The notes beneath the pieces were generated by a model. That model was not told where the DNA came from, did no database searches, and saw only the letters and a list, made by a program, of their open reading frames with translations. A program made the position numbers and the translations under genes. 64,000 nt of DNA, from positions 28,358,983 through 28,422,982 of the forward strand of contig NC_058337.1 in NCBI RefSeq assembly GCF_905475395.1, written 5' to 3'. Positions 6,480 through 62,886 of this stretch are shown piece after piece; positions within the stretch are counted from its first letter, which is position 1, and each line of letters opens with the position of its first letter. This DNA comes from Chrysoperla carnea (taxonomy: Eukaryota; Arthropoda; Insecta; Neuroptera; Chrysopidae).

Positions 6480-7000
6480 TTTTTCCACCAAAGTACACGA
6501 GACGATACGAGACTATTGTTTACGCAAACATTAGTAGTGGCGTTTATTGTACTGAAAAGTAGAAAATAATTTTATCTATAAGTCACTCATACCCGACTAT
6601 TTGTAAAAGCTTGAGGCGGTTAATTTAAAATATCAAAAATGAATCGGTACGCCTCATCTACTCCACATGCCTAATTACTTTTCGATTAATCCTTGATAAT
6701 AAGCGCCTCAAGCTTTTACAATTGGTCGGGTGTGAGTAACCTATAGATAAAATTATGTTCTACTTTTTAGTACAATAAAAGCTTGTCCCTTAAAAAGTAT
6801 TTTTTATTAAAATTTGTTATTTAAGACTAAAAAAATGTATATATATAAAATATGGTGGAAGCGATGGGAAATCAGACCTTAAAACTTACCATGCATTGTC
6901 ATCCAAACTAAATGTGCATGTAAAATTTCAGCTCAATCGGTTGAAGATATCTACTTCAAAATTGAGTTCAAAGAATCCACAGTAACATACATTGCAAGTT
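6480..7000 (+). mobile_element. Fold-back element with family-B tail
   Basis: Two inverted arms (about 6545-6620 and 6700-6785) contain the blocks AAGTAGAAAATAATTTTATC and its complement, surrounding a loop with GAATCGG. The right side continues as the repeat called family B here, with TATGGTGGAAGCGATGGGAA and an AGCTCAATCGG block. Similar arms occur at 24450-24605 and 25690-25990. There is no coding potential. Confidence 0.6.
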
Positions 7001-8552: not shown

Positions 8553-9024
8553 AAACAAGTGAAAACAAACAATTGACTGAGTTAATTGTTGAAATACCAT
8601 GCATAGACAGTGTTGATTACTCTATCACATTACACATACATACATGTCACACATACGTAACTGATATCCCTATACATACTATACAATTTACGCCTAATTT
8701 GCGGCCTCGCGGGTAAACAGTGCTGTTTACGAAAAAATGTTTCAAACAAAATGTTTCAAGACCCAATTGACCTATGTTGCTAATTTACGAACTTGACCCC
8801 ACTTTTTACGCCCTGAGTACGCTGTAAAAATTTCAACTTGATATATTTTTTCGTTTTGAGTTATCGTGTTGGCAGACAGACGGACAGACAACCGAAAATG
8901 GACTAATTAGGTGATTTTATAAACACCTATACCAAAATTTTCTTCATAGCATTAATATTTTTAAGCGTTACAAACTTGGGACTAAACTTAGTATACCTTG
9001 CACATTACAAATATGCATGGTATA
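8553..9024 (+). mobile_element. R1 interspersed repeat, internally shortened copy
   Basis: It starts with ACAAGTGAAAACAAACAATT and the imperfect palindrome CAATTGACTGAGTTAATTG. It then has the GTAAACAGTG block, a jump that skips the GTTCTATCTCTAAC section found in other copies, the ACTTTTTACG block, the AGACAGACGGACAG stretch and the terminal GCATGGTATAA. The boundaries match the R1 copies at 18.1 and 33.9 kb. Confidence 0.8.
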
Positions 9025-9385
9025 ATTAAATTAAGAAAGTCGAACGCAGGTAGCTACATACTGTGGTTCCTCAAATATTTTTTAATTATTTATAAAATTC
9101 AAATAAGTTTTGTTTTTTTTTAACAATAATTATTGTTTAAAAAAATTATTTAAACATTGTACAGCTATGTATTTATCTACACGCATTATTTTTGAGATAT
9201 TTACGCACCAATTAAAAATTAAATTGGTGTTGCAATTGCCTATTATGTGGTTTTATTGGTATTCAACAATTATAAAACTTTTCATTTTTTAATTTTACCA
9301 TAAATATGTATCCTAAGTTTAATTATCAAATTCAATACAATTACAAAAGTGAAATTTATAAAATTGAAAAAAAAATACTAAAAAC

Positions 9386-12163: not shown

Positions 12164-12707
12164 CAAGTGAAAACAAACAATTGAATGAGTTAATTGTTGT
12201 AATATCATATATAGACAGTGTAGATCACGTAATCGTTTGTTTTTTTACGTCATGTAAGTAAATAAAGATAGTCACTCTTAGGTAGCCACACTCGTGTATA
12301 TATAGCACGACATGTGGGGTCACACGTACATAACTGATATTCCCATATAATACATACTATAATGTTATAATCTAATCACGGATAATAATCAGTGAAAAAA
12401 ATGTTTCAAACAAAAGTTGTTTATTTTTTTATAAGAAATATTTTTTGCATTAAAACTTTTGTTCTATCTTCAATTGGCCTATGTTATTCATTTACGAATT
12501 CCACTGCCCTGGGTACGCTATAAATTTCAGCTTGATATCTCTTTTGGTTTTCGAGTTATCGTATTGACGGCCGAATGGAAGGACGGATAGACGGGCAGAC
12601 AAACGGAAATAGACTAATTTGGTGGTTTTATGAACACACTACCAAAATTTTGTTCGTAACAACAATATTTTTAAGTGTTACAAACTGGGGACTAATTTTA
12701 GTATATC
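12164..12707 (+). mobile_element. R1 interspersed repeat, 3' end broken by a SINE
   Basis: The 5' part is complete (ACAAGTGAAAACAAACAATT onward), and the block order follows the other R1 copies up to GACTAATTTTAGTATAT. There the SINE head begins, and the usual GGTATA terminus is not found after it. It carries a private 60-base stretch around 12245-12310 not seen in other copies. Confidence 0.75.
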
Positions 12708-12996
12708 TTCGTATCCTAAGCTCAGTTGGCTAAAGCGTAACCAATTCCCTCCGCGGTATGCTTAAGATAGCGAGTTCGATTCCCACCGTCGCAACAAAAT
12801 TTATTTAATTAATAGTTGTGATGGGCTGGTGTAGTGCATGGTATATGCATGAAGGAGGTGCACTCAGCTTCTGAAATTGAGGAGCTGATAAATAAAAATT
12901 ATCAGCGAAAAGGTGGTAAAACACATATATAGTATCACAATGGGCTCTATGGCCTAAGTGCGTCCTTCGTGGACAGTCATTATAACCTAACCTAAC
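12708..12996 (+). mobile_element. tRNA-derived SINE, copy 2, longer form
   Basis: Same family as the copy at 3840-4083 but in the opposite orientation. It shows AAGCTCAGTTGGCTAAAGCG (box A region), GAGTTCGATTCCC (box B), the shared body with AATTATCAGCGAAAAGGTGG and GTCCTTCGTGGACAG, and a short CCTAACCTAAC tail. It has about 45 extra bases (including GGTGCACTCAGCTTC) that the first copy lacks. It is inserted at the end of an R1 repeat, so it is younger than that R1 copy. A possible short duplication GTATA flanks it. Confidence 0.85.
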
Positions 12997-17800: not shown

Positions 17801-17920
17801 TCCAATAAAATTTTTTTTAAAGTAATGACATTTGATGTAAGGTTTTTACTCCAATGATTATATCAACATGTGCGTTAGTAGGGAAACCCAATTTATGTCT
17901 GGCAAATTAAAATAAAATTT
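14856..17920. other. Gene-free stretch with degenerate repeats
   Basis: No coding region was recognised. Phrases such as AAAATTTCAAGTCGATACTC (about 15948) and CAGCGGTTTCAGC (about 15990) are typical of decayed insect transposons, and a family-B fragment sits near 17653. A G-run (GGGGGGG) occurs at about 16151. Confidence 0.35.
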
Positions 17921-18136
17921 GTATACCATGTATATGAAATATACCAAGGTATACTAAGTTAAGTTCCAAGTTTGTAACGCTTAAAAAAATTAATACTATG
18001 AACAAAATTTTGGTATAGGTGTTCATAAAATCACCTAATTAGTCCATTTCCGGTTGTCTGTCTGTCTTTCGTCTGTCGTCTGTCCGTCTGTCTTCACGAA
18101 TACTCAAAAACGAAAAGAGATATCAAGCTGAAATGA
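17921..18136 (-). mobile_element. R1 interspersed repeat, truncated, abutting an inverted copy
   Basis: This is the 3' half of R1 in reverse orientation, from TATACCATGTATATGAAATA to GATATCAAGCTGAAATG, where it breaks directly against a forward R1 copy. The matching region of that copy lies at about 18500-18736, so the pair forms a long imperfect inverted repeat. Confidence 0.8.
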
Positions 18137-18738
18137 AAACAAGTGAAAACAAACAATTGGATGAATTAATAGTTGAAATACCATGTAAAGACAGTGTTAA
18201 TTATTCTGTCACATTACACGTACATACATGTCACACATATATAACTGATATTCCCTTATAATACATACAATACAATTTGCGCATAATTTGCGTTCTCACG
18301 GGTAAACAGTGATGTGACGAAAAATGTTTCAAACAAAGGTTGTTTCTTTGCTTATAAGGAACATTTTTTACATTTAAATTTTTGTTCTATCTCTAACTGT
18401 TTACAAGATGAGTTCCACAGACCCAAGACCCAATTGACCTATGTTGCTCATTTACAAACTTGACCTCACTTTTTACGTTCTTAGCACGCTATAAAAATTT
18501 CAGCTTGATATCTCTTTTCGTTTTTGAGTAATCGTGATGGCAGATGGACAAACGGGCTGACCACAGATAGACGACAGACGACAGGCAGACGACAGACAGA
18601 CAACCGGAAATGGACTAATTAGGTGATTTTATGAACATCTATACCAAAATTTTGTTCATAGTATCAATATTTTTAACCGTTACAAACTTGGCACTAAACT
18701 TAGTATACCTTGGTATATTTCATAGACATGGTATAAAA
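18137..18738 (+). mobile_element. R1 interspersed repeat, full-length copy
   Basis: One of the most complete R1 copies, about 600 bp. It has the 5' block ACAAGTGAAAACAAACAATT, the GTAAACAGTGATG block, GTTCTATCTCTAACTG, ACTTTTTACG, then an enlarged purine tract of GACAGACGACAGGCAGACGA-type units (about 18540-18605), then GGAAATGGACTAATTAGGTG, and an end at CATGGTATAAAAAT. There is no open reading frame of note, so mobilisation would need a partner in trans. Confidence 0.85.
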
Positions 18739-19790
18739 ATGGCTTAAAATGATTTTAAATTAAACAATTCACAGCTTTATTCGAGAATGCACACTAGTTC
18801 ACGCAGTTAACGTCACCGCTCTCAGATGTCAAACGTACGTTGTTCCTCCCTAATTTCATTAAGAAAATAAAAATCCAATATCCAGCCGACTTAAAATAAA
18901 CTTTTTCATGACTTTATATCAAAAATGACCTGTTTAGATAAAAATTTTGTCGACAATAATATTTTAAAAATGTTATTTATTAATTTGGTCAATAATGACC
19001 ATGGCACACACCATGGTCATTAATGATAATTGTTAATAATAATTTAAATATAAATTAGGTAAATTGTTACATAGAATTAATATTTTTGATTTATTTTTTA
19101 ATTTAATGTTTTTTTAATAATTTTTATTTTAATTTTGTTAGAATCTAATGATGGTTGTAAAAATGATTTGATGATTTCGCCTACTCATTTTCAATTATTT
19201 CTAATTATTTTAACATATATTAAAATTTTATTTTCGAGGACGAATTATCATTTTTATTACGGAAATGCTTACTTCATGTTTTTGTTTTTACAAAACTGAA
19301 CAAGTATAAAAGAAAAAGGAAGCACTTTGAGGCCTAAAAGTGGCCTTAAAAAAAGGTATTGCTAAACGAAAGTAATCGAGTACATAAATGTATTCGAATT
19401 AATCGGGATCTGAACGACATAAAATGATAAAAAAATGAATTCCATTATCTATTAAACTTTTTTTGTCCCTTTTAGAGGCTGTATACAAAATATGTCCAAC
19501 ATCAATTTTTATGGCGGCTACGTTGAAACTAGAAAACTCAAATTTTCTAAAATTTGTTCGTTAAATATCACATTTAGTAAGTATAAATTAATTACAAGAC
19601 TATTTTCGAAAATTTCGCTTAGTAAAAATTTGAATAAAAAATACTTTTAAAGAAACATGCTTTTATTGTACTAAAAAGTAAAAAAAAAAATTTCATTAGA
19701 GTTACTTATACTTGATGAGCCATTCTTGATATTTTTAATTGAGTACCTCCAGCATTTAAAAAGCTTGTCCCTAAAAACTTTTTATACCCT
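18739..19790. other. Intergenic, nothing recognised
   Basis: The stretch is AT-rich. A short palindrome built on ATGACCATGG/CCATGGTCAT lies at about 18991-19026. No gene is supported. Confidence 0.4.
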
Positions 19791-20332
19791 GTATACTTAT
19801 ATGAAATATTCATCAAGGTATTGTAATTTTAGTTCCAAGTGTGTAACTCTTAGAAATATTTATAACACGAACATAATTTTGGTTTAGGTGTTCATAAAAT
19901 CATCTAATTAGTCCATTTCCAGTTGCCTGTCCCCTTGTCCGTCCGTCTATCATCACGATAACTCAAAAATGAAAAGAGATATGAAGCTGAAACTTTTAAA
20001 ACGTAAATGTGGGTCCCTAGGACCCATCATATAAACCGTTAGAGATAAAACAAAAGTTTAAATGTAAAAAATGTTCCTTATAAAAAAATAAACAACTTTT
20101 GTTTGAAACATTTTTTCGTAAACATCACTGTTTATCCGTGAGGGCGAAAAGTAGGACAAAGCTATAATGTCTATTTTCTCCAAAAAATTATTAGCCGAAA
20201 GGCCGCCATAATCGTGTTGGGTTTTTAAACTCTTCTAATTAATTAAAAATAATGAAAGCACTGACATTCAACACTTTCTATACAGGGTATTTCAACAATT
20301 AACTCAGTCAATTGTTTGATTTCACTTGTTTT
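19791..20332 (-). mobile_element. R1 interspersed repeat, variant subfamily
   Basis: The copy is in reverse orientation, from TATACCCTGTATACTTATAT to AATTGTTTGATTTCACTTGT. Its 5' third (about 20155-20275) differs from the main R1 type and contains GGACAAAG...TTTTCTCCAAAA and GTTTTTAAACTCTTC. The same variant segment occurs in the copy ending at 62886, defining a second subfamily. Confidence 0.8.
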
Positions 20333-20374
20333 TTATTTAAATTTTTAATTTACAATTAAAAAACGTACGTATTT

Positions 20375-24299: not shown

Positions 24300-24605
24300 A
24301 GTTTCACCTGTCCCGTTGTCTGTCTGTCTGTCTGACCCACTTCCGGCTTTCCGATTAAGCTGAAAATTTGCATGCACATTTAGTTTGGATGACAATGCAT
24401 GGTAAGGTTGTGGCGTCCTAATTTCCAATCGCTTCCACCATATTTGATATATATACATTTTTTTTAATCTTAAATTAAAAATTTTAACAAAAAATACTTT
24501 TTATGGGACAAGCTTTTATTGTACTAAAAAATAGAAATTAATTTTATCTATGAGTCACTCATACCCGACTATGTGTAAAAGCTTGAGGCGCTCAATTTAA
24601 AATAT
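24300..24605 (-). mobile_element. Family-B repeat with fold-back arm
   Basis: Read in reverse it has TATGGTGGAAGCGATTGGAA, the AATGTGCATGCAAATTTTCA block and a GACAGACAGACAGACAACGG tract. The other side carries the arm with GGGACAAGCTTTTATTGTAC and GAGTCACTCATACCCGACTA, shared with 6545-6620 and 25690-25990. Confidence 0.65.
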
Positions 24606-32149: not shown

Positions 32150-33905
32150 ACGAAATAGAAACAAAGTCGGCTACAGTGGAAAGTCGAATTTTTATTTTTG
32201 AAATTAAAAAAAAATTACCCTTTAATATAAAAATTCAGTAACCGGTCTTGAATAGAGAACTTGTAAATTTTTTAAATGATGTAAAATAAATAAATGTACA
32301 AAATATTTTGTTCATGAAAAATGTATAATTTTAAACTAAACCAGGAAATTTTTGCGTAATAACAAATCAAATTCATTCGATGTTATGTAACTTAAAGCAT
32401 ATGTATTTTACATCGTATTGAATGTGCCAGAAAAAATTATATCAAATATACAAATCAGTTTAATTTTATTATGATTGCTATTTACTTTTAAACTATGAAA
32501 TCCAATTCGGTAATTAATAACAATTGTTTCTAGAAAATATTTCTATTTTAATTTTAATAATTATAATTTGTTGTTACTGAGAAGTCTCAATAAAATAAAG
32601 AGACGAAACGTCCAACTGCATCAACTGTAATGTTCTGATTTGATATTCCCAAAGCCAACTTCCCTGTGATTCAATTTGTTTATATATTTTTCTATAAAAT
32701 TTTGTAAATCGATGGTTATGCCAATTTAAAAAAATTATTAAAACATATCTTACCATTTTATCGCTTTATACGTTAATGTGTTAAGTAAATACGTAGTTCA
32801 ATAAGTAAAGCAAAAGATATTGCAAAAATAACATGGAATTTCCTCAAATATATTATAGGTTTTAACAAAAAAAGCCTAATATCTTAACACCACAGCGTTA
32901 AAAGATTTTCGAACTTAAGTTGTTTTAATTGACGATGTAACTATCATATTACTCCTAGATTTTAATAAAATTCATCAGCGCTTTCCCGGAAAGTTTGAAA
33001 AACTCGAATGATGGATTTTTTTTGTTAAGTTTCCTTATTTCGATTTATTTCTACAGCTATAGATATTGCTTATTTTTCGTGAAAACAGTGATTAATTTTC
33101 TTGTTCTAAGAGTTACTCAGAATATGAATAGTCATTTAAAAACAATGTTTACTTGGAAATTTTTTACTCGATAGGATGGTACACGTCCATTGACACTTTT
33201 CCTAACTACATAATCGTACAATAAATAAATTGTTTATTTAGTCTCAGTGTTTAAATTTAATAAAATTTATTTGCATATCTGAGCTACTGAAAATATATCA
33301 TAGCCTGTATTTATAAATGTACTCAATGGTGGATGTTTTCTTACATGTACAAAAAGATATTATCTATTATAATATAACTAAAACTCTTTGTCACTTCTCA
33401 TTCTTATGTTGAAATTTCAAAACTTTTAAGGGATAAGGCCTATGTAACAGGATACAAAATTTACAATTTTATATCAGCTTTTCTACGGACTAATCATTAA
33501 AGAATGAAATATAGCCTATTTTATCAAATAAATATTCAGCAGTTATAAATGTTTATTAAAAAGTCCTATAAATTGATTGAGATATTCGGCGTGATTCAAA
33601 AAAAAAACTTGGATTTAACATTGCCTTTACATTGTAAACAACATATCAAAAACAAACAAAAAAAAAAAAAAAAAATCTTATTTGATGTAAGGTTCACCCC
33701 CTTTTCATGTATAAGTTGACTGAATTAAATTTTTATATTCGTTGTTAAAATATACAATAAATAACTAGCCATTTTATGTAGTGAATTTTTCCATAAATGT
33801 AAATTGTTCAGTGTTTATGTCGTCATTAAATTGTAAACAATTAAAATTTGTTGACAATTCATCCTTTTGAAATTTATGGACACGAATCATGACTAAAAGC
33901 TTTTA
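32150..33905. other. Intergenic, nothing recognised
   Basis: No gene is supported between the MRGBP 3' end and the R1 copy. A poly-A tract occurs at 33660-33675. Confidence 0.4.
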
Positions 33906-34513
33906 AAACAAGTGAAAACAAACAATTGACTGAGTTAATTGTTATAATACCATGCATAGTCAGTGTTGATTTCTTTATCACATAACACATACATAACTAA
34001 TAAAGTATAGTACATATGTAAATGACTTTATAGGTTTCTGCATTACCGACCGACATTTAGTGTATAGTTTGTACACATATTATAAAATTTCCGCCTAATT
34101 GGCGCCCTCACGGGTAAACAGTGATGTTTACGAAAAAATGTTTCAAACGAAAGTTGTTTAATTTTTGATAAGGAACATTTTTTACATTTAAACTTTTGTT
34201 CTATCTCTAACGCTTTATAAGATGGGTCCTACGGACCCAAGACCCAATTGACCTATGATGCTCATTTACGAACTTGACCTCACTTTTTACGTCCTGAGTA
34301 CGCTGTAAAAATTTCAGCTCGATATCTTTTTTCGTTTTTGAGTTATCGTGACCACAGACGGACGGACGGACGGACGGACAACCGGAAATGGACTAATTAG
34401 GTGATTCTATGAACACCTATGACAAAATTTTTTTCCTAGCATAATTATTTTTAAGCGTTACAAACTTGGGACTAAACTTAATATACTATGTATATTTCAT
34501 ACATGGTATAAAA
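33906..34513 (+). mobile_element. R1 interspersed repeat, full-length copy
   Basis: A complete forward copy from ACAAGTGAAAACAAACAATT to CATGGTATAAAAA, including an ACGGACGGACGGACGGACAA tract at 34359-34381 and GGAAATGGACTAATTAGGTG. It carries a private AT-rich segment around 34000-34075. It is the best local reference for the family together with 18137-18738. Confidence 0.85.
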
Positions 34514-37440
34514 ATATTACAAGTTCCCTATTAAAGTGTAAATAATTGTGAACTATCTTAATATAGATGTTGAGTGACCCATATTCGTTCAATGTTTTTC
34601 TCTTTTTTCCAATTGCAGACCAACGTAAATCCTCCCCAATAACATATTATAAGGTTTAGTTATTTTTAATCCACAACTTTTGCCGTCCTTAAAAAGGTCC
34701 AAGGTTTCATAATTTCAAAGATTTAAATACAACTTATATATAAATTGTTAAAAAAAATTCCACAATGCTCTTTTATATAGAAAAGAGAATAGGAAATATT
34801 TGTGCACTCTTTTTCTATCTTTAACAAACGCAACGAACATTATTTTGATCAATTTTGATAAAAATTATCCATTACATCTTTTGCAATACATTAGTTACCA
34901 AGGCAGAGCGTAGTTAAAGAGAGCATAAGGATTCTACCATCTAATTCATGTTTAAACGTAAACAGGACAGGAAAGTATGTTATTGAAAGGGTGAAATCGG
35001 TTTTTTTTAAGATTTTGACCTATAGTGCAGATAAAAGCGTTTTAGTTTTTAACAAAGACGATATATTTACCGATATATTGTCTGGTTTTTAGTGTTATCA
35101 AGGAGGTTACAATCAGCTCTTTTAGTATCTGAAATGTAATAATTATTAGGAACAAAAAGTACAACTTTACGTGTAATGAAACTAAATATTTTTATTGTAT
35201 ATGTATTTTTAAATACTGAAATATTACTTTCAGAAAAACAATTCATTTTTTTTTTTCATACAACTCAAAACATTTTTGTATTTTTTTATTTGTTGATTTC
35301 TTTTTGTAATTTATTGCTGCATAAAAATAAATCATTTAAGAAAAATACTTGTATTTTCATTAAATTATCCTAATTGTTTTTTGTTGATTATGTTTTTTTT
35401 TTAAATGTTTACACGAAATTCATTAAACTAACATTGTTTGCAATAAATGTTCCCTTACAGCTTAAGGCATTTCACAACAAAAAAATTTTCTAAAATAATT
35501 TTACTAAAACACATCGCAACATAAAAAATTACGTAAATAAGTATCCTCAAATTTATAATACGAATTATTTTCAGTCCTGTGAGACCCTGTAGTATCATAC
35601 TCTTGATACGCAAGAAATAAATAAGAATTTATCGTCGTAAGTTTGAGTATTTTTCTATACATTCGATACATCGATAAGCGTTAAAACAAAATTAACGAGC
35701 AACGTTTAAAAATAGGATGTAATCAATTTATTATTAATTAAAATTTAAAAAGGTACCAATACGATGGATGATATAAGAAAAAACCAGTGGCGTAACATAA
35801 TCATGACATTCATTTATTATTTAATTTTAGCACAAGTATCTTCCTGTTGAGACATTGGTAGTAAGATATCATCTAATTTCACCATATACAAATTTTAAAC
35901 CGACTTCCAAAAACTACCAATCTTTTTAACCGAACAAACTTAGTGAATCTATCAAGCCTTATCGGTTTAAATGCACTTTGTATCCGACTATTTAAAAATA
36001 TTATACATATAATGAAATAGAATTAAAATTAGATAAAATTTTGTATCGCCATGATTTTAAAAATGTGTTTCGATGTTTTTCTAAATATGTAAAAATTGAA
36101 ATAAAATCACGCGATTATTTTCCTTTCTTCAGCCCCAAACTGATCAACCCTATCCATATTTCTTACAAAAAAATTAGTTTTCTACAACCATATTCGTACG
36201 TTATTAAGCCGATTACACATATAGTGGATTTCTCCGCGGTATACAGGGGCCATTTTAATCTATTATCGCTAATAGTCCGTTTTGTACTTCAACCAAAAAA
36301 TAACAAACAAAAGTTTCAGAGTTTGATGGTGGGCATAATATTCTGACGACATATTGGACCTAGTTCTCCGGGATTCTTTAATGGTCAGGTTAGATCGTAA
36401 AATGTAAGAGATAGAATAACACTTTAAATTAGAAAGTTGATCCTCATAAAAAAAAAAAAAAACATTTTTTATTCAAAACATTTTTTCAAAAATCGTTAGC
36501 TTTCGGAGGATATGCAACTTAAAAATATATGATTATTCCATTTAATCAAAAGAATTCTCTTAACTTTTACAATCTAAATTGACAATTGAGGCAACCGGCA
36601 GAATTATGTCCAATCTGATGCCAGAATATGGTGTTCCCCCATCAAACTTTGCAACTTTGGTTTAAGTTTTTTTTCGATTGGTTAAATATGAAACGATATA
36701 TAAGCCATAATAGAATAAAATGGTCCACCCCCTTTTAATTTGCTGTTTGCAGTAGTTAAGCAGTCACTGGACATGAAAAGAACTGGTGTAATTTTTGCGT
36801 AAAGAAAAAGAACCTTTGACTTACACATTCAATAGAAGTCATTGTTTTCAGAATCATTTTCCAAAAGAGACTGATAAAAAAGACCAAATAAGGGACTGTA
36901 TCAGAATTATATTAGTAATTGCAAAGACACAACGTTAGTCAGTTTATTTAGATAACTAGCTGATCCCGAAAAATTCTGCCTCTATCATACTGCCATAAAA
37001 TATAGCCTAAAATAATCATTGAACTATCACAGTAAAATTAAAAAAAAACTATTTTCGAGATGACAAAAAGCAAGTAAACTAACGCACATTTACATGGAAG
37101 TAATACATATTGCCCATATCGTTTAAAAAATAACAAAGTTTTTTTCTGCTTTTTCTTAGTATTAAATGTAGAAAAGCATCTTTACAAGAAATTCAAAAAC
37201 CCGTACCTCGATATCTTCACAATTTTCACGAGTGTGGTAGAAGATTCTCCATACGAAATTAATTTTCAGGTTTTGAAATCCTAAGTTGTTACGCCACTAT
37301 ACAAAAACACCAAATTAATGCTTAAAAAGAAGAATACTTTTTTATGAATAATAATAGTAACGAATAATAAGTTCAATTGCACTGAAAATTATATATTTTT
37401 TTAAAGAATTTGTTGAATTTAAATGCAAGAGATTGAAACA
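34514..37440. other. Intergenic region between convergent MRGBP and SMAP
   Basis: No supported gene. Phrases AAACCGACTTCCAAAAACTA (about 35898) and ACTAGCTGATCCCGAAAAAT (about 36955) resemble conserved parts of decayed insect transposons. The 101-codon frame at 36041-36346 between them has no recognisable domain. Confidence 0.4.
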
Positions 37441-39333: not shown

Positions 39334-40176
39334 TTCAACTAATTACTGGCTAAAAGACGAATCTACTTGTATATACAATTTGATAGGAGTTACAAGATGT
39401 CACAAATTGATATAATTTGATCGTATTACAAGTCAACAAAAATTTTAATTAGTCATGTACCAAACATACGTACATTGTTACATATCTACATTTATCTTTA
39501 TTTTTATCTAATTAAATATCATTTAATAAAATTTAAAATTAAATAATAATTATAATGAAAATGATAAATTCAATGAAATTAATTATGGTTGTATATTAAA
39601 AAATAATTAAGATTGTTTTGATTTTAAAGACAATTTTATTTGTATAAAAAACATGATTAATAAATTATATTGTAACACGACACGTCATTTACGCAAGCGT
39701 ATTAAAGGTGTATAATATGAAATAAATTTCAATGATTTAAAAAAAAAATTCATTTTGAATATTTAATTTATCTTATTATCTTTTGTTTTAATTATATATT
39801 TTTACGTGTTTAGTATTTGCTTAAAAGTTTTAAAATAGAATACGAAGATATATGTCGTAAAAAAGCATATAGTTTTAAAAGGTTTTAATTAAATTTTATT
39901 AGATAACTTATAATGTTGTTTTGAAATTCATTTTAAGAAATTTGCATAATTGTGAAATAAAGATTTATTGATTATATATAATTGCATGATATTGAAGTTA
40001 TTAAAAATTCTATAAATATATTTTAAATTAATATTTAACAGAATCAATTATCTCAACGCGTTGCATCTATGTTGCTTGTTTAATATGCGACAAATAAACA
40101 AGATTGGCAGATGAAAAATATTTTTAACCAATCAAATTATAATAATTTTGGCACCATAATGTGTTTTGACCATAAT
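39334..40176. other. SMAP upstream region, AT-rich
   Basis: This region holds the SMAP 5' flank. No clear TATA or initiator can be singled out from the AT-rich background, and no gene is seen. Confidence 0.4.
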
Positions 40177-40723
40177 TTTTATACCATGTATATGAAAAAT
40201 ACCAAGGTATACTAAGTTTAGTCCCAAGTTTGTAACGCTGAAAAATATTGATGCTATGAACAAAATTTTGGTATAGGTGTTCATAAAATCACCTAATTAG
40301 TCCATTTCCGGTTGTCTGTCTGTCTGTCGTCTGTCATAACGATTACTCAAAAACGCATAGAGATATCAAGTTGAAATTATAGCGTGCTGAGGACGTAAAA
40401 AGTGAGGTCGAGTTTGTAAATGAGCAACATAGGTCAATTGGATCTTGGGTCTGTAGGACCCGTCTTGTAAACTGTTAGAGATAGAACAAAAGTTTAAATG
40501 TAAAAAATGTTTCTTATAAAAAAATAAACAACGGTTGTTTGAAACATTTTTTCATAAACATCACTGTCTACCTGTGAGAGCGCAAATAGTATAGTATGTA
40601 TTATATGGGAATATCAGTAATACATGTGTGACATGTATGCACGTGTAATGTGACAGAGTAACCAACACTGCCTACACATGGTATTTCAACAATTAACTCA
40701 GTCAATTGTTTGTTTTCACTTGT
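40177..40723 (-). mobile_element. R1 interspersed repeat, full-length copy
   Basis: A complete reverse-oriented copy of about 547 bp, from TATACCATGTATATGAAAAA to TTGTTTGTTTTCACTTGT. It has all blocks in order: TGTCTGTCTGTCGTCTGTC, AAAAAGTGAGGTCGAGTTTG, GGTCTGTAGGACCCGTC, AGAGATAGAACAAAAGTTT, AAACATCACTGTCTACC and CAATTAACTCAGTCAATTG. No coding capacity. Confidence 0.85.
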
Positions 40724-54523: not shown

Positions 54524-55266
54524 TATCATATAGCACAACAGTGCGTTAGCGTAGAATAAGTAAAATGGAAAATTGAAAGGGTAATGTATGATGATGATGA
54601 TGATGTATATGTGAAATGTCAATGTTTTTGTTGTGACTATATATACAGGACGTCAAATAGCCCTTTTTCACACCCTTATATCTCAGAAACTACTTGAGCT
54701 ATAATGTTGCGCTTTTCAACTTAAGTAGATATATACACTGGGACGCCGTAAATCAAAGCTCACGTTCACGGCTCTCATCGTTTCCGAGCAATAACGCGTC
54801 AAAAAACGGCCACGCCCCGAAATTTTGTTGCTGACTGATATAAATTCACAGCAAAACTGAGAAATGGTAGAAAGATGCGGTTTTCATTAAAATAAATTAG
54901 AGAAAAATCATACCCCAGAAAAAATACCAAATATCAAAATTTTTAACGGGAAATGGGAAATTTCGCTAATTAAAAGTGCATTTTAAGCCCTATTAAAAAT
55001 ACATGGTAAAATATGAACCAATCAGAAGGCTAGTTTTTTTTCCTATACAATTTGTATGGTAAAACTTAAATACGCTTAAAAATTTGTTATTTATATAATT
55101 TTAATTAAATATTGATTAAATTTGAATAAATATTAAATAAATAATCAAAAATTATCTGTGTATTTCAATATTTCCAACTCAAAATATTATAAAAATTAGA
55201 TTAAATATTTCGTATACACTAGGACCCTATGAAATTCAAAGTACCATGTAGAAAACACATAAAAAT
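54524..55266. repeat. Direct repeat A flanking the H2A copy
   Basis: About 743 bp closely similar, in the same orientation, to 57302-58052. Shared landmarks in order are TATCATATAGCAC, GACTATATATACAGGACGTC, ATCTCAGAAACTACTTGAGC, TCACGTTCACGGCTCTCATC, ACGCGTCAAAAAACGGCCAC, GAACCAATCAGAAGGCTAG and AAAGTACCATGTAGAAAACA. The two differ by scattered substitutions and small indels (for example the number of GATGAT units). No open frame spans it. Class unknown: a transposon, an LTR-like pair or duplicated histone spacer are all possible. Confidence 0.85.
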
Positions 55267-56568
55267 TAAATAGTATTTCTAATTTACTGTTGTAGTAAAC
55301 ATGATTTATTTTTTCAATTTCTATAATATATAAAATAATAAATTATAAATTTAATAATAATATTTATTTTATAAATTAAAATATATTTAATTTTTTTATT
55401 AACAATTATTAATAAACATAGTTTAATATTAATTATTTCAACCATACAAAACAATAATATTTTCAAGGTAAACTTAAAAAGTAAATGTTTTTAGTTTTTA
55501 GTATTTATTTAATATTGATTTATTATAAATTATTAGTATATAAATAATTAAAAAATTTAATATATATAAATATATATATTATAGTATAAGATTTCATTAT
55601 TAGAAAAACTTTTTTTGTCAATAATGAAAACGTATTATTATGAAATGTGTTAATCGAACATTGACAAAATATATTTCATTAGAAAATACTTTTATTTATG
55701 CATTAATATCAATAATTAACTATTAAATTAATTTTTTCATAATTATATAAAGAAATTTTATACTGATATAAGTATTTATATATTATAATATTTATTTTAA
55801 ATATCAAAAAAATTTATGACAAAATATAGTATTAGAGTATTTGTTGAGAGTAATATCATTTATAAATTTATCTTGTTAATCAAATTTTTTGTTACTTAAC
55901 TTATGTATTGAGAAAATATATAATATTATTTATATAATTGAAATATAATTGACATAAAATCTTACAAATGAAATTTTATTAATATGTATCAAATGAAGAG
56001 AGTAACGTATTGATATAATATCAAAGGATACTGATTATTTAAAAAAAGAATACGTCATATATTGTTTGTGTAACGAAGTCCACTTGGTCATCTAGTTTAA
56101 AATGACATTTTCAATAGAAAGTTTATATGCTTTTTTTTTTCTTTTATCATTAAACAAATGAATTGAAATTTAATTCAATCAAATTTGATAATAATTTTAT
56201 TAAAATTTTTCCTTTTAAAAAATATTTTGTGATGTTGTGATAATATGTATTAAAACAAGTGCATCCTGATACTTTTATCTCTAGTAAAGCTATGAGTATT
56301 ATGAACAGTTTTGTTATCTAATGATATTATTTTGATAATATTTTGTGAATATTCTTATAATATTTTGTCTAAATATCATCATAATATGACATAAATATCA
56401 TTATAATATGTTACCTAAATGTCATCATAATATGATGAATTATTTTCATAATAACATATAAAAAAAAAGAATCATTAATTTATAATTATTTAAAATTGAT
56501 TCTTTAAAAAAATATTATAATATATTATTTATAAAAATAATTTTTACTCTTATTTTAAATAAATTTGT
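55267..56568. other. Extremely AT-rich spacer
   Basis: About 1.3 kb with almost no G or C. Around 56360-56450 an irregular tandem pattern of ATCATCATAATATGAC-like units is visible. There is no coding signal. Confidence 0.6.
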
Positions 56569-56634: not shown

Positions 56635-57008
56635 TTATGCTTTCTTTTCAGTTTTCTTTGGTAATAACACTGCTTGAATGTTTGGTAATACACCACCTTG
56701 AGCAATTGTTACACCAGATAAAAATTTATTTAATTCTTCATCATTACGAATTGCCAATTGTAAATGACGTAGAATGATACGTGTTTTTTGTTATCACGGG
56801 CAGCATTACCAGCTAACTCGAGAACTTCTGCAGCCAAATATTCCATAACAGCAGCCAAATATACTGGGGCACCAGCACCTACTCGTTCAGCATAATTTCC
56901 TTTTCGTAATAATCTGTAAATTCTTCCAACAGGAAATTGTAATCCTGCTCGGCTTGATCTTGACTTTGCCTTTCCCTTAACTTTACCACCTTTACCTCGT
57001 CCAGACAT
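56635..57008 (-). pseudogene. H2A: Histone H2A copy with frameshift and altered core residues
   Basis: The reading starts [20 protein letters not shown] and follows insect replication-dependent H2A to AARDNKK. There one A is missing from an A run (T run 56784-56789 on the plus strand), shifting the frame. After the shift the H2A match resumes to [11 protein letters not shown] and a TAA stop; with that base the length would be the usual 124 residues. Three positions that are nearly invariant in H2A are changed: GRIYRLL (normally His), IILRHL (normally Pro) and NKFLSG (normally Leu). Two of these are C-to-T type changes. The broken frame could be a homopolymer error, but the three replacements favour a decaying copy. 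It is intronless, as H2A genes are, and no other histone gene is nearby. Confidence 0.88.
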
Positions 57009-57301: not shown

Positions 57302-58052
57302 TATCATATAGCACAGCAGTGCGAATCGTAGATTAGTTTAAAATGGAAAATCGAAAATTGAAAGTGTAATGTATGATGATGTATATGTGAATGTATATGT
57401 GAAATGTGTATGCTTTTGCTGTGACTATATATACAGGACGTCAAATAGCCCTTTTTCACACCCTTATATCTCAGAAACTACTTGAGCTATAATGTTGCGC
57501 TTTTCAACTTAAGGAGATATATACCCTGGGACGCCGTAAATCAAAGCTCACGTTCACGGCTCTCATCGTTTCCGAGCAATAACGCGTCAAAAAACGGCCA
57601 CGCCCCGAAATTTTGTTACTGACTGACATAAATTCACAGCAAAACTGAGAAATGATAGAAAGATGCGGTTTTCATTAAATTAAATTAGAGAAAAATCATA
57701 CCCCAGAAAAACTTCCAAATATCAAAATTTTTAACGGGAAATGGGAAATTTCGCTAATTAAAAGTGCATTTTTTCCCTATTTAAAAATACATGGGAAAAT
57801 ATGAACCAATCAGAAGGCTAGTTTTTTTTCCTATACAATTTGTATGGTAAAACTTAAATACGCTTAAAAATTTGTTATTTATATAATTTTAATTAAATAT
57901 TGATTAAATTTGAATAAATATTATATAAATATTCAAAAATTAATTGTGTATTTCAATATTTCCAACTTAAAATATTATAAAAATTAAATAAAATATATCT
58001 TATTACTAAGACCCTATGAAATTCAAAGTACCATGTAGAAAACATATTAAAA
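57302..58052. repeat. Direct repeat B flanking the H2A copy
   Basis: The second copy of the roughly 745-bp repeat at 54524-55266, same orientation, start-to-start distance about 2.78 kb. The similarity stops abruptly at both ends, so the spacer with H2A is not itself duplicated. Confidence 0.85.
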
Positions 58053-58087
58053 TTATTATGTTACATTAATTAGGAAAATTTTAATTT

Positions 58088-58360
58088 GCTTTTATAGCGA
58101 AAACTGTAAGAGATAGAACAAAAGTTTAAATGCAAAAAATGTTCCTTGCATAAAATTAAACAATTCTGTATGAAAAATTTTGTTGTAAAGGTAATTGTTT
58201 TCCCGTGAAAAGCAAATAAAGTAAAAAATTAAATTGCAATTTTCGGAAAAACGGTAAGAGATAGAACAAAAGTTTAAATGTAAAAAATGTTCCTTACATA
58301 AAAATAAACAACTTTTGTTTGAAACATTTTTTCGAAAAAACAATCATTTTCCCTCGAGAA
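58088..58360 (-). repeat. Two tandem copies of an R1 internal segment
   Basis: The phrase GTAAGAGATAGAACAAAAGT followed by TTAAATG(C/T)AAAAAATGTTCC appears at about 58108 and again at about 58254, each followed by a TTTTCCC-GAA block. This is only the middle of R1, duplicated in tandem, an arrangement not seen in other copies. Confidence 0.7.
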
Positions 58361-58379
58361 AGTAAATAACCAGTCCTGT

Positions 58380-58944
58380 TTTTTTCGTTAATGCAAAATC
58401 CAACTATTTTTGTCCTTAAATTTAAAAAAAGTATAAATATAATTTCACAAAAAGTTTTAAGCCATTTTGCTTGTATGTCTTGTAGTGTTCACTACTAACG
58501 GTTGCTATGACAACGAATTTTATTTTCTTTAAAACAATGGTATTGTTATGTTCAACAATAAATAATCTTGCAACCCAATTTTGAAGCCGACACCCTCAAT
58601 CGATTACGTTGAAATTTTGTAAGCACGCTGACTTTGAATGACATTGAATTTTTATGGTTGACTTGATCAAATTTTCTCTTCGCTTCCGCCATATTTTGTT
58701 AAATGGGGGGGGGGATGTTATTACTCAATTTTAAAGCAGATATCTTCAACCGATTGAGTTGAAATTTTGTATACACGTTTAGATTTGATAACAAAACATG
58801 GTAAGGTTAGTGTCGTTATTATTTTTCCATCACTTCCACTATAATTGATTTATCTATAAATGATTCAGCTATACCGATTCTAAGGGACTTCTAAATTATA
58901 GAAAGATGCGATTTTGGACATTCGACAGAGACTTGCTTGAATTG
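58380..58944. other. Degenerate repeat region
   Basis: It contains two related phrases, TCAATCGATTACGTTGAAAT (about 58597) and TCAACCGATTGAGTTGAAAT (about 58748), with CGCTTCCGCCATATTTTG and CACTTCCACTATAATT, all in the reverse sense of family B. A GGGGGGGGG run is at about 58707. No gene. Confidence 0.45.
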
Positions 58945-60354
58945 AGGGTCAACCTATGCGCAGTACTATTACATGTAATCCTCGTGTGCGCACAAGCAAT
59001 TTTTAAGGCCTACATGTGCGCAGTAACAAAATATAAATTTAGCGTATGCGCAGTTGCAAGATTCAGGATAAATGCATGCGCACAACTATAATTATTGATT
59101 AATCTGTGGGCACTTCCCGGATATAATACCCAAATATGCGCACTAACAAAATATAAAGTCCCTGTATGTGCAGTTGTAATATTCAGGATCAACCCATGCG
59201 CAGTATTATTACATGTAATCCACATGTGTGCACATGCAATATATAAGGCCTACATATGCGCAGTAGCAAAATATTAACCAAGCTAATGCGCAGTTCTAAG
59301 ATTCAGGTAAAATGCATGCGCAGAACTATCATTTGTGATTAATTTATGCGCATTTTCAATATTTAAGGACCAAATATGCCCATTTACAAAATATAGGGTT
59401 CCCGTTTGCGCAGTTGTAATATTTAGAATCAACCCATGCGCAGTACTACATCATGTAATCCACATGCGTGTACTAGCAATATATAAGGCCTATATACGCG
59501 CAGTAACAAAATATAAATTCAGCGTATGCGTAGTTGTAAGATTCAGGATAAATGCATACGCACAACTATAATTATTGATTAATCTGTGCGCACTTGCCGG
59601 ATATAATACTCAAATATGCGCACTAACAAAATATAAAGTCCCTGTATGCGCAGTTGTAATATTCAGGATCAACATATGCGCAGTACTATTACATGTAATC
59701 CACATGTGCGCACTAGCAATATATAAGGCCAACATATGCGCAGTAGCAAAATATTAATGAAGCTAATGCGCAGTTCTCAGATTCAGGTAAAATGCATGCG
59801 CAGAACTATAATTTGAGATTAATTTATGCGCATTTTCAATATTTAAGGACCAAATATGCCCATTTACAAAATATAAAGTCCCTGTTTGCGCAGTTGTAAT
59901 ATTTAGAATCAACCCATGCGCAGTAATATTTCATGTAATCCACATGCGTGCACTAGCAATGTATTAGGCCTACATACGCGCAGTAATAAAATATAAATTC
60001 AGCGTATGCGTAGTTGTAAGATTTAGGATAAATGCATGGGCCGAACTATAATTTGTGATTAATCTGTACGTACTTCCAATATATAAGACCCAAATATGCA
60101 CACTTACAAAATTTAAGGTCAATGTGTGCGCAGTTGTTGTATTCCAGATTATCCCATGCGCAGAACAATTATATGGGATCAAAGTGTGCGCAATACCAAT
60201 ATATAAGACCCAAATATGCGCACTTACAAAATATAAGGCCCCTGTATGAGCCATTGTAATATTCTGGATCAATCCATGTGCAGAACTATTTTATAAAATC
60301 AAGCTGTGCGTATTACCCATAAATAAGGCCTTAATATTTGCACTTACATAATAT
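58945..60354. repeat. Phased 30-bp tandem array with 480-bp higher-order repeat
   Basis: About 47 monomers of exactly 30 bp, each with a TGCGCA or near-TGCGCA core (58957, 58987, 59017 and so on) followed by alternating AT-rich arms such as GTAATATTCAGGATCAA, AACAAAATATAAAGTC and AGCAATATATAAGGCC. I saw no insertion or deletion across the array. Segments 480 bp apart are nearly identical (59041, 59521 and 60001; 59281 and 59761), and those 240 bp apart are clearly related, so 16 monomers form a higher-order unit. Because 30 is a multiple of three, frames with a 10-residue rhythm (Cys-Ala recurring) stay open on both strands; stop codons interrupt them and I do not regard them as genes. Confidence 0.93.
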
Positions 60355-60712
60355 CTGTCTGTCCGCTTGCACATCTGTCTGCCAACACGATAACTCAAAA
60401 ACGAAAAGAGATATTAAGATGAAATTTTTATAGCGTACTCAGGACGTAAAAAGTGAGGTCAAGTTCGTAAATGATCATTATACGTCAATTGATTTCTGGG
60501 TCTGTGGAACCCATCTTGTAAACCGTTAGAGATATAACAAAAATTTTAATGTAAAAAATATTCCTTATAAAGAAATAACCAACTTTTGCATAAAACATTT
60601 TTTCGAAAACATGACTGTTTACCCATGCGGACGCAAATTAGGCGTAAATTATATAGAATGTATTATATAATAATCAATATCAGTTATATGAAAATGAAAT
60701 TTTCATTATAAT
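60355..60712 (-). mobile_element. R1 interspersed repeat, truncated at the array edge
   Basis: It begins inside the GTCTGTCCG pyrimidine tract of R1 and continues AACGAAAAGAGATATTAAG, AAAAAGTGAGGTCAAGTTC, GTAAACCGTTAGAGATATAA and ATGACTGTTTACCCATGC, fading near 60710. The R1 3' end that should lie to the left is replaced by the 30-bp array. Confidence 0.75.
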
Positions 60713-60868
60713 ATTTATAAATAACACTATTTTGATGATATCTTGTTCGGCATATTTCTTGACGTACGAGGCTCAGTATTCAACAGTAATTCAATGTATG
60801 CATAATGGTGAGTTAAAATTGTTACAAACACTTTCAACTTAAATACTATTGCCTGGCAAAAAGAAGTG
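60713..60868. other. Short spacer
   Basis: Nothing recognised between the R1 fragment and the palindrome. Confidence 0.4.
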
Positions 60869-61865
60869 ATATCCCACCAAAAACATAAATGTGTAAAAAG
60901 GCGTAGATGTCACAGAATTAAAATAAACTCAATTACGTCAGCCCAAAAAAGTTGTGAAATCCCGTAGAGAAAAAAATTCTTCGAAAAAAAATTATAAAAA
61001 TGGCATAAATTTATTGAGTAACTTTTCCGTAAAGAAACATTAAAGTATTACATTAGCAACTTTTCGGTGACTTCATACCTACACGCACCTGTATAGGAGA
61101 ACAAAAGATAATCGTTAACCCCCTACTATCTCCCTCCTCCCCTCTAATGTTATGACGTTATAATTTTTTCACAACTTTTATTAAACATCAAAATTTAAAT
61201 TTAAACAATCAAAGTATTCTTTAGATTAAAGTCAAGCACCTACTTAACAAAGGCCTAATTTTTTTACTAAAGTACGAAAATTGTTGGTTTAAATTTCTTG
61301 TGTAAGTTTCTCCTTAGTACGTATTTATTTAATATTTTACTTCGCAAGTTTTCGGAATACAAAAAACGAATCTAAAAATAAAAAACTTGCGAAGTAAAAT
61401 ATTAAATAAATACGTACTAAGGAGAAACTTACACAAGAAATTTAAACCAACAATTTTCGTACTTTAGTAAAAAAATTAGGCCTTTGTTAAGTAGGTGCTT
61501 GACTTTAATCTAAAGAATACTTTGATTGTTTAAATTTAAATTTTGATGTTTAATAAAAGTTGTGAAAAAATTATAACGTCATAACATTAGAGGGGAGGAG
61601 GGAGATAGTAGGGGGTTAACGATTATCTTTTGTTCTCCTATACAGGTGCGTGTAGGTATGAAGTCACCGAAAAGTTGCTAATGTAATACTTTAATGTTTC
61701 TTTACGGAAAAGTTACTCAATAAATTTATGCCATTTTTATAATTTTTTTTCGAAGAATTTTTTTCTCTACGGGATTTCACAACTTTTTTGGGCTGACGTA
61801 ATTGAGTTTATTTTAATTCTGTGACATCTACGCCTTTTTACACATTTATGTTTTTGGTGGGATAT
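60869..61865. repeat. 484-bp inverted repeat with 29-bp spacer
   Basis: The left arm 60869-61352 and right arm 61382-61865 are reverse complements. Base positions at the outer and inner ends add to the same value (122734), so there is no net indel, and every stretch I compared, including homopolymer runs, matched. The spacer is CGGAATACAAAAAACGAATC plus TAAAAATAA. The outer ends read TATCCCACC ... GGTGGGATA, compatible with a TA-flanked fold-back element with TCCCACC termini. No gene lies inside. A cruciform or long hairpin RNA could form. A read-through or assembly artefact is the main alternative. Confidence 0.92.
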
Positions 61866-62319
61866 ACTAAATCAGCTACAGAACAAATTTTTTTGATAGT
61901 GAAGTTTGCGTGAATTTTTGATACTTCTAATTGTTTAATGTTTTATTTCCATAATAATCCGTAACTTTCTCGTTTTGCACCCGTAACTCTGTAATATGTT
62001 TGAAAAGTGATACTATTAATATCCATCAACATTATATATTGGGCAAAAAGGCTACACATATTTTCATCGTAATATGTGTGTCCTCAGAAGACGGATGGCT
62101 CATGTGATCCCAGATATTTTATCAGTCTTAGCAACCCACTTTGCTTTTAAATTTTTCTACAAAAAAAAAATAAAATAAATATTTATTTTCGATTCTCACT
62201 ATCGCGTTTTTAGACTCACATACAGACAAGATTTCAACAACATTTCCTTCCCTAAAAAAAACCACCTATTTTATCCCATTTGTTACATACTGTTTAATTA
62301 TTTTCCTAAGTATTGATTC
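61866..62319. other. Spacer, nothing recognised
   Basis: No supported gene or element between the palindrome and the next R1 copy. Confidence 0.4.
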
Positions 62320-62886
62320 CCAAAAATATTGATGCTACGAATAAAATTTTGGTATAGCTGTTCTTAAAATCATCTAAAGAGTTCATTTCCGGTTGTCCGC
62401 TGTAAACACGATAACTAAAAAACGAGAAGAGATATCAAGCTGAAATTTTTATAGCGCGCTAAGTGAGGTTGTGCTCGTAAATGAGCAACATAGGTCAATT
62501 GGGTGATGTAAACCGTTAGAGATAAAACAAAAAATTAAATGTACAAATTTTTCCTTATAAATAAATAACTTGTTTGAAAAATTTTTTCGTATACGTCACT
62601 GTTTACCCGTGAGGGCGCAAGTTAGGACAAAACTTCCATTTTCTCCAAAACTATAAAAGATTAGGCAGTTGAAAATTTGCAGATAGCTTCAAGTAATGGT
62701 TTTTTGAAATATTCTCGAAAAACGAAAAAAATTCTAGAAATATTTTCGAAAACCAACTAAATGAATAAAATGTTGGTTTTTAAACTCTTCTAATTTATAA
62801 AAAAGAAATGCAAGCACTAATATTCAACACTTTCTATACATGGTATTTCAACAATTAACTCAGTCAATTGTTTTTTTTCACTTGTT
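62320..62886 (-). mobile_element. R1 interspersed repeat, variant subfamily
   Basis: A reverse copy from TTGATGCTACGAATAAAATT to TTTTTTTTCACTTGTTTC. It carries the variant 5' third (GGACAAAACTTCCATTTTCT, GTTTTTAAACTCTTC, CAAGCACTAATATTCAACAC) shared with 19791-20332. The pyrimidine tract is reduced to GGTTGTCCGCTG. Confidence 0.8.

What the first reader, a model, noticed from the sequence alone, without database searches (positions are those of the whole stretch)
58945..60354. Indel-free 30-bp array with TGCGCA core and nested 240/480-bp higher-order structure
About 47 monomers keep exact 30-bp register although arms have diverged, and TGCGCA (with its CpG) persists while the rest is AT-rich. 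Blocks 480 bp apart are almost identical and blocks 240 bp apart related, meaning repeated duplication of 8- and 16-monomer units. Thirty bp is close to three helical turns, so the palindromic cores face the same side of the helix. That suggests either a protein-binding platform (GCATGCGCA resembles the NRF-1/erect-wing site, an inference) or a young satellite.
Basis: partly seen in the sequence, partly recalled or inferred. Interest (0 to 1): 0.8.

Follow-up and report, generated by a model that had tools for sequence, protein, structure and literature searches.

The report
Aging 30-bp minisatellite between transposon remnants
A 1.4-kb stretch of probably insect DNA is built of 47 copies of a 30-letter unit that doubled in steps and kept its length and a small central motif; it looks like an ordinary, now decaying tandem repeat, though its strict spacing is unusual.

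Summary
The array is real: 47 monomers of exactly 30 bp (58945-60354), sharp edges, no indel, no further strong copy in the 64 kb. It is not coding. TGCGCA is exact in 28 of 47 monomers; its conservation exceeds a divergence-matched neutral model (19 and 5 of 5000 runs), but since the last duplication core (5/96) and arms (25/384) changed alike. Lack of indels is significant against dispersed repeats of the same window (0 beside about 124 substitutions, against 36 per 301). NRF-1/EWG is not supported. Both flanks carry remnants of GTCY-type (DINE-1/mini-me-like) elements, but on the right the array lies on the wrong side for a DINE-1 central repeat. Best reading: a non-coding minisatellite grown by in-register unequal exchange, once constrained, now ageing. 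The genome search did not complete, so relatives elsewhere remain unknown.

The parts
58945..60354 (+). Tandem array of 47 monomers x 30 bp without indels; four monomer classes make a 120-bp unit, two types of 120-bp unit alternate as a 240-bp dimer
59065..59544 (+). First copy of the only clear 480-bp (16-monomer) duplication
   Evidence: 450 of 480 bases identical to 59545-60024
59545..60024 (+). Second copy of the 480-bp duplication
60145..60354 (+). Most diverged end of the array: block 60145-60264 is 67-76% identical to the other ten 120-bp blocks compared; the last four monomers have no exact TGCGCA
60355..60689 (+). 5'-truncated remnant of a dispersed GTCY-microsatellite element (DINE-1/mini-me-like, A2 side); its short, degenerate GTCY-like start abuts the last monomer
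   Evidence: blastn matches to other copies start at 60354-60378; alignment. The GTCY pattern scan did not list this degenerate tract
58723..58856 (+). Left-flank dispersed repeat (copies at 6838-6967 and 24351-24455); the 24 kb copy has a GTCY tract directly upstream, so it may be the A2-like part of a second GTCY family
   Evidence: no GTCY tract was listed at 58-59 kb itself
58566..58697 (+). Further, weaker copy of the same left-flank repeat (71% to 6847-6974)

Best explanation
A single-locus (within this window), non-coding minisatellite in a repeat-rich intergenic stretch of a eukaryotic, probably insect, genome. Shown: 30-bp monomers in four classes form 120-bp units, these alternate as 240-bp dimers, and one 480-bp block was duplicated once. 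Inferred: each step was an unequal exchange or slippage in register, which gives multiples of the previous unit. Shown: in the older divergence the TGCGCA core changed much less than the arms, and no length change is seen anywhere. Inferred: this reflects past constraint, most simply a DNA-binding protein that read the core at fixed spacing, or a need for core and spacing in the amplification itself. Shown: since the last duplication core and arms have changed alike. Inferred: the array is now ageing and probably has no present function.
For: Register, levels and block matrix. Core against arms, mismatches: lag 120 45/258 against 379/1032 (p about 1e-9); lag 240 38/234 against 214/936 (p 0.027); lag 480 over the whole array 23/186 against 117/744; the 480-bp duplication alone 5/96 against 25/384 (p 0.81). 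A neutral stepwise-duplication simulation matched to the observed divergence (0.464, 0.332, 0.221, 0.150 against 0.465, 0.329, 0.215, 0.151) reaches the observed core information in 19 of 5000 runs and the core-to-arm contrast in 5 of 5000; column permutation p 0.0016. No indel beside about 124 parsimony changes on a neighbour-joining tree of 11 blocks of 120 bp (the last 90 bp left out), while nine disjoint pairs of dispersed repeats show 36 gaps per 301 mismatches; Fisher p 7e-6. Not coding: 13 to 37 stops in every frame; the two most open frames show no excess of third-position changes. CpG observed/expected 1.13 in the window and 1.01 in the array. No further strong monomer in the window.
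Against: Total lack of indels is not expected of an unconstrained minisatellite and is explained here only by inferred past constraint. The test after the last duplication is small (96 core sites), so weak present constraint is not excluded. Indel controls are other repeat families; some pairs have no gaps (for example 39 mismatches, 0 gaps), and the nine disjoint pairs were picked by hand from 46. On the within-class tree the core is only mildly slower than the arms (17 changes on 24 sites against 107 on 96). Single-locus status is known only for this 64-kb window.
Confidence: 0.62

Rival explanations
1. The array is the expanded central tandem-repeat region of a DINE-1/mini-me/HINE-type (Helentron-derived) element, of which flanking remnants survive; such elements carry family-specific tandem repeats beside a GTCY microsatellite.
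For: The right flank begins with a short GTCY-like tract and continues as the A2-like part of a dispersed family with nine other places in the window. Of seven copies whose 5' ends were examined, all have TATACC and five also have GGTATA behind it, like the DINE-1 5' subTIR and inverted repeat (PMC2374699, section 6 part 1 read). The left flank, 88 bp before the array, belongs to a repeat whose 24 kb copy has GTCY directly upstream. In DINE-1 central repeats lie between blocks A and B, so 3' of A2 (PMC2374699); in oyster HINEs they lie 10-500 bp behind a microsatellite-ended left flank (PMC7492417, passages).
Against: The right-hand GTCY lies 3' of the array, where DINE-1 would have block B; the array occupies the place of block A1. 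No block B was recognised beside the array (no dedicated search for 3' subTIR or hairpin was made). No GTCY tract was listed in the left flank itself. No element copy in the window carries a strong monomer.
Confidence: 0.25
2. A working homotypic binding platform: an unidentified protein binds TGCGCA every 30 bp, and selection keeps core and spacing today.
For: No indels against the local control; core conservation beyond matched neutral simulation; 28 of 47 cores exact.
Against: Core and arms changed alike since the 480-bp duplication (5/96 and 25/384). 19 of 47 cores are mutated, including all of the last four. NRF-1 full sites and C/EBP-type sites are not enriched. Dyad symmetry beyond the six core bases is no more than column composition predicts. 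Spacing is not a whole number of turns at 10.5 bp.
Confidence: 0.1
3. A decayed protein-coding repeat (10-residue units), which would explain the absence of frame-breaking indels.
For: Period divisible by three; two frames, plus frame 0 and minus frame 1, have few stops (14 and 13 in about 470 codons).
Against: No excess of third-position changes in those frames; the frames with a slight excess have 30 and 36 stops; no Pfam match for the 100-residue minus-strand ORF.
Confidence: 0.02

Closest known systems
Satellites with higher-order repeats and a conserved short box (alpha satellite with CENP-B box; Meloidogyne satellites, PMC3694981, abstract and section list seen)
   Same: Diverged monomers, higher-order repeats, a short motif more conserved than the rest
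   Different: Monomer only 30 bp, array only 1.4 kb, no indels; TGCGCA was not compared with a CENP-B box, and no centromeric link is known
Responder (Rsp) satellite of Drosophila melanogaster (PMC4280042, passages seen)
   Same: A 240-bp dimer of two related 120-bp types; small euchromatic islands of 1-12 repeats are reported
   Different: Here the two 120-bp types are only 63-68% identical (Rsp Left and Right 84% in the paper) and are made of 30-bp monomers; no sequence comparison with Rsp was possible
Central repeats of DINE-1/mini-me and HINE elements (PMC2374699 passages and part of section 6; PMC4067079 and PMC7492417 passages)
   Same: Tandem repeats next to GTCY-microsatellite elements; 120 bp lies in the 50-500 bp range given for DINE-1 central repeats
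   Different: Array lies on the A1 side of the right-hand GTCY; no block B recognised
NRF-1/EWG binding sites (PMC10810270, passages seen)
   Same: A TGCGC half-site is present in each intact core
   Different: No GCGCATGCGC full site; successive cores are 24 bp apart

Membership tests
Minisatellite / satellite with higher-order repeat | Head-to-tail tandem copies of a unit of tens of bp | tested here: met
   47 x 30 bp
Minisatellite / satellite with higher-order repeat | Multimeric units more alike than neighbouring monomers | tested here: met
   Identity rises from 0.535 (30) to 0.671, 0.785, 0.849 (120, 240, 480)
Minisatellite / satellite with higher-order repeat | Non-coding | tested here: met
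Minisatellite / satellite with higher-order repeat | Large or multi-locus abundance (satellite proper) | not testable with these tools
   Own-genome search unanswered in ten tries; no other strong monomer in the window
DINE-1/HINE central repeat | GTCY microsatellite within block A, 5' of the array | tested here: inconclusive
   A degenerate GTCY tract lies 3' of the array, the wrong side for its own element; none was listed in the left flank, whose family has one at its 24 kb copy
DINE-1/HINE central repeat | Array followed by block B, 3' subTIR and hairpin | tested here: inconclusive
   Array is followed directly by a GTCY-like tract and A2-like sequence; no dedicated hairpin or subTIR search was made at this end
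DINE-1/HINE central repeat | Same array in several dispersed copies with shared flanks | tested here: inconclusive
   Not found elsewhere in 64 kb; genome not searchable
NRF-1/EWG site cluster | GCGCATGCGC-type full sites above chance | tested here: not met
   0 with fewer than two mismatches; 5 with two against 2.04 +/- 1.92 expected for up to two, 13 of 100 shuffles reach 5
Responder satellite | Sequence homology to Rsp | not testable with these tools
   No collection searched here is one of insect genomes

The most novel reading that the evidence does not exclude
A tandem array in which both a 6-bp palindromic core and an exact 30-bp spacing were kept by selection for most of its history: a spacing-reading DNA platform for an unidentified insect protein, lost or relaxed at this locus only recently, and perhaps intact at other loci or in related species.
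Probability: 0.1. Interest if true: 0.6.

Novelty: new member of a known kind. Interest (0 to 1): 0.27.

Why it matters
As an ordinary minisatellite it mainly illustrates stepwise doubling (4, 8, 16 monomers) caught in one short array, with a readable order of events. The zero-indel register together with an old but no longer visible core constraint makes it a clear, testable case of whether short euchromatic repeats pass through a protein-bound phase before they decay.

Tried and rejected
Rejected: NRF-1/EWG platform (the degenerate consensus used is recalled, the core site is in PMC10810270); C/EBP-type site RTTGCGYAAY (21 matches with up to one mismatch in the window against 26.7 expected, none inside the array; consensus recalled); coding repeat; extended palindrome (dyad symmetry beyond the core is as column composition predicts); helical-phase A/T periodicity (power 2.6 at 10 bp and 0.1 at 10.5 bp against 24.1 at 30 bp); RNA family at gathering score, tRNA (none). 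Borderline and not pursued: a single-strand DNA fold of one 480-bp block is somewhat more stable than shuffles (z -1.8, 3 of 100 as good).

Led nowhere: distant blastn of 58400-61900 against phages and plasmids, no match; two exact patterns of 20 and 23 bases in viral contigs, 0 hits. Four TGCGCA at 30-bp spacing occur in 4 viral and 60 prokaryote stretches; none of these 64 loci matched the array by blastn at E up to 1, and I did not look further at what they are. Literature: eight paper searches listed no paper that I recognised from title or abstract as describing this repeat; only six papers were opened, so absence from print is not claimed. The first two simulations were more diverged than the array (lag-30 mismatch 0.636 and 0.520, against 0.465), which favours my reading; the matched one replaces them (one search gave 1 and 8 of 5000). 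In the monomer scan one of 20 Markov controls scored 23.2, above the best site outside the array (9.2), so the scan says only that no strong copy exists outside.

Full report
Observation. The window holds a tandem array at 58945-60354: 47 monomers of exactly 30 bp, in one unbroken register. Tandem Repeats Finder reports it at 120, 240 and 480 bp with 1%, 0% and 0% indels. TGCGCA occurs 28 times in the array and twice elsewhere in the window (5.1 +/- 1.8 expected; 0 of 100 shuffles reach 30). A profile scan, built from the monomers themselves, finds no further strong monomer in the 64 kb (best 9.2 bits outside, lowest 13.9 inside; 19 of 20 random controls peak at 7.3-14.1 and one at 23.2), and the flanks in register score -18.8 or lower, so the edges are sharp.

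Anatomy. Identity between positions rises with lag: 0.535 at 30, 0.671 at 120, 0.785 at 240, 0.849 at 480. Four monomer classes make a 120-bp unit; 120-bp units alternate between two types that are 63-68% alike, while units of one type are 77-96% alike (the first 11 units; the last 90 bp were left out, and the eleventh unit, at 60145, is 67-76% to all others). A neighbour-joining tree shows the same two groups, with the unit at 60145 as a long early branch on the side of the second type. The 480-bp level is one event: 59065-59544 and 59545-60024 share 450 of 480 bases, and identity falls on both sides. The last four monomers have no exact core.

Core. TGCGCA is exact in 28 of 47 monomers. Its six columns are the most informative contiguous six (9.10 bits; permutation p 0.0016). 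A neutral model of stepwise duplication, matched to the array's overall divergence, reaches this value in 19 of 5000 runs and the observed contrast between core and arms in 5 of 5000. The timing matters: the core's mismatch rate is nearly the same at old lags (0.148-0.174 at lags 30 to 240) while the arms' rate falls from 0.54-0.57 at lags 30-90 to 0.367 at 120 and 0.229 at 240. Over all positions at lag 480 it is 23 of 186 against 117 of 744, and for the 480-bp duplication alone 5 of 96 against 25 of 384 (p 0.81). The core was therefore protected during the older history and shows no protection after the last duplication, within the power of 96 sites. On the within-class tree core columns carry 17 changes on 24 sites and arms 107 on 96, a mild difference.

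Indels. About 124 substitutions are counted on the 120-bp tree, and no indel. Dispersed repeats in the same window give 182 gaps away from microsatellites per 1642 mismatches over 46 overlapping comparisons, and 36 per 301 over nine disjoint pairs that I picked by hand from them; Fisher p is 7e-6 for the latter. Single pairs vary, and a few have no gap (for example 39 mismatches, 0 gaps). This is the most unusual feature of the array, and the ordinary reading does not explain it without assuming past constraint.

Not coding, not a known site cluster. All six frames have 13 to 37 stops, and the two most open frames show no excess of third-position changes. The 100-residue minus-strand ORF has no Pfam match. 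NRF-1 binds two TGCGC motifs within GCGCATGCGC (PMC10810270, passages); the array has no YGCGCAYGCGCR with fewer than two mismatches, and five matches with two against 2.04 +/- 1.92 by chance. Dyad symmetry beyond the core is what column composition predicts. CpG observed/expected is 1.13 for the window and 1.01 for the array, so CpG survival in the core needs no special explanation.

Surroundings. The window is eukaryotic: Pfam finds an Eaf7 domain in the ORF at 31.2 kb, EF-hand_2 and EF-hand_3 at 50.6-51.3 kb (dystrobrevin-like, a recalled label) and a histone domain at 56.7-57.0 kb; four of the seven ORFs given had no match. 'Insect' is my inference from the look of genes and repeats and was not tested. 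Both sides of the array are dispersed repeats. On the right, matches to other copies begin at 60354-60378: a short degenerate GTCY-like tract, which the pattern scan did not list, followed by the 3' part of a family with nine other places in the window. Of seven copies whose 5' ends were examined, all have TATACC and five also GGTATA behind it; then come GTCY and a conserved part: the layout of DINE-1 block A (PMC2374699, section 6 part 1 read). On the left, 88 bp away, lies part of a second repeat family; its copy at 24.3 kb has a GTCY tract directly upstream. DINE-1 and HINE elements carry family-specific central tandem repeats (passages), so an origin as such a central repeat is a serious rival. 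Against it, the array lies on the A1 side of the right-hand GTCY, no block B was recognised (no dedicated search for the 3' end was made), and no other element copy in the window has a strong monomer.

Conclusion. The array is best read as a non-coding minisatellite that grew in register (30 to 120 to 240 to 480 bp) by unequal exchange (inferred), kept core and length during its older history (shown; the cause is inferred), and now decays (shown for the core within limited power, inferred for function). Whether it is single-locus, whether relatives keep it, and which organism it is could not be determined: the search of the source genome was tried ten times and never answered.

Noticed in passing
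60869-61865: A near-perfect palindrome about 515 bp right of the array: two 484-bp arms, 100% complementary, 29-bp spacer; the arm has no other match in the window. Either a very recent foldback-type element or inverted duplication, or an assembly artefact.
   Followed up: partly
54524-55268 and 57302-58055: A direct repeat of about 750 bp, 93% identical, on either side of the H2A-like reading frame.
   Followed up: no
56730-57008: Minus-strand H2A-like reading frame; the Pfam histone match ends at residue 75, after which it no longer looks like H2A (recalled comparison): truncated gene, intron or pseudogene.
   Followed up: no
58072-58219 and 58220-58369: Tandem duplication (80%) of a piece of the 3' part of the GTCY-element family, left of the array.
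   Followed up: no
2523-2791, 8757-9033, 12319-12714, 17916-18134, 18136-18740, 19779-20345, 33905-34515, 40175-40723, 62322-62626: Copies of a DINE-1/mini-me-like dispersed family, eight of the nine with a listed GTCY microsatellite (longest copies about 550-610 bp), about 66-91% identical to each other.
   Followed up: partly
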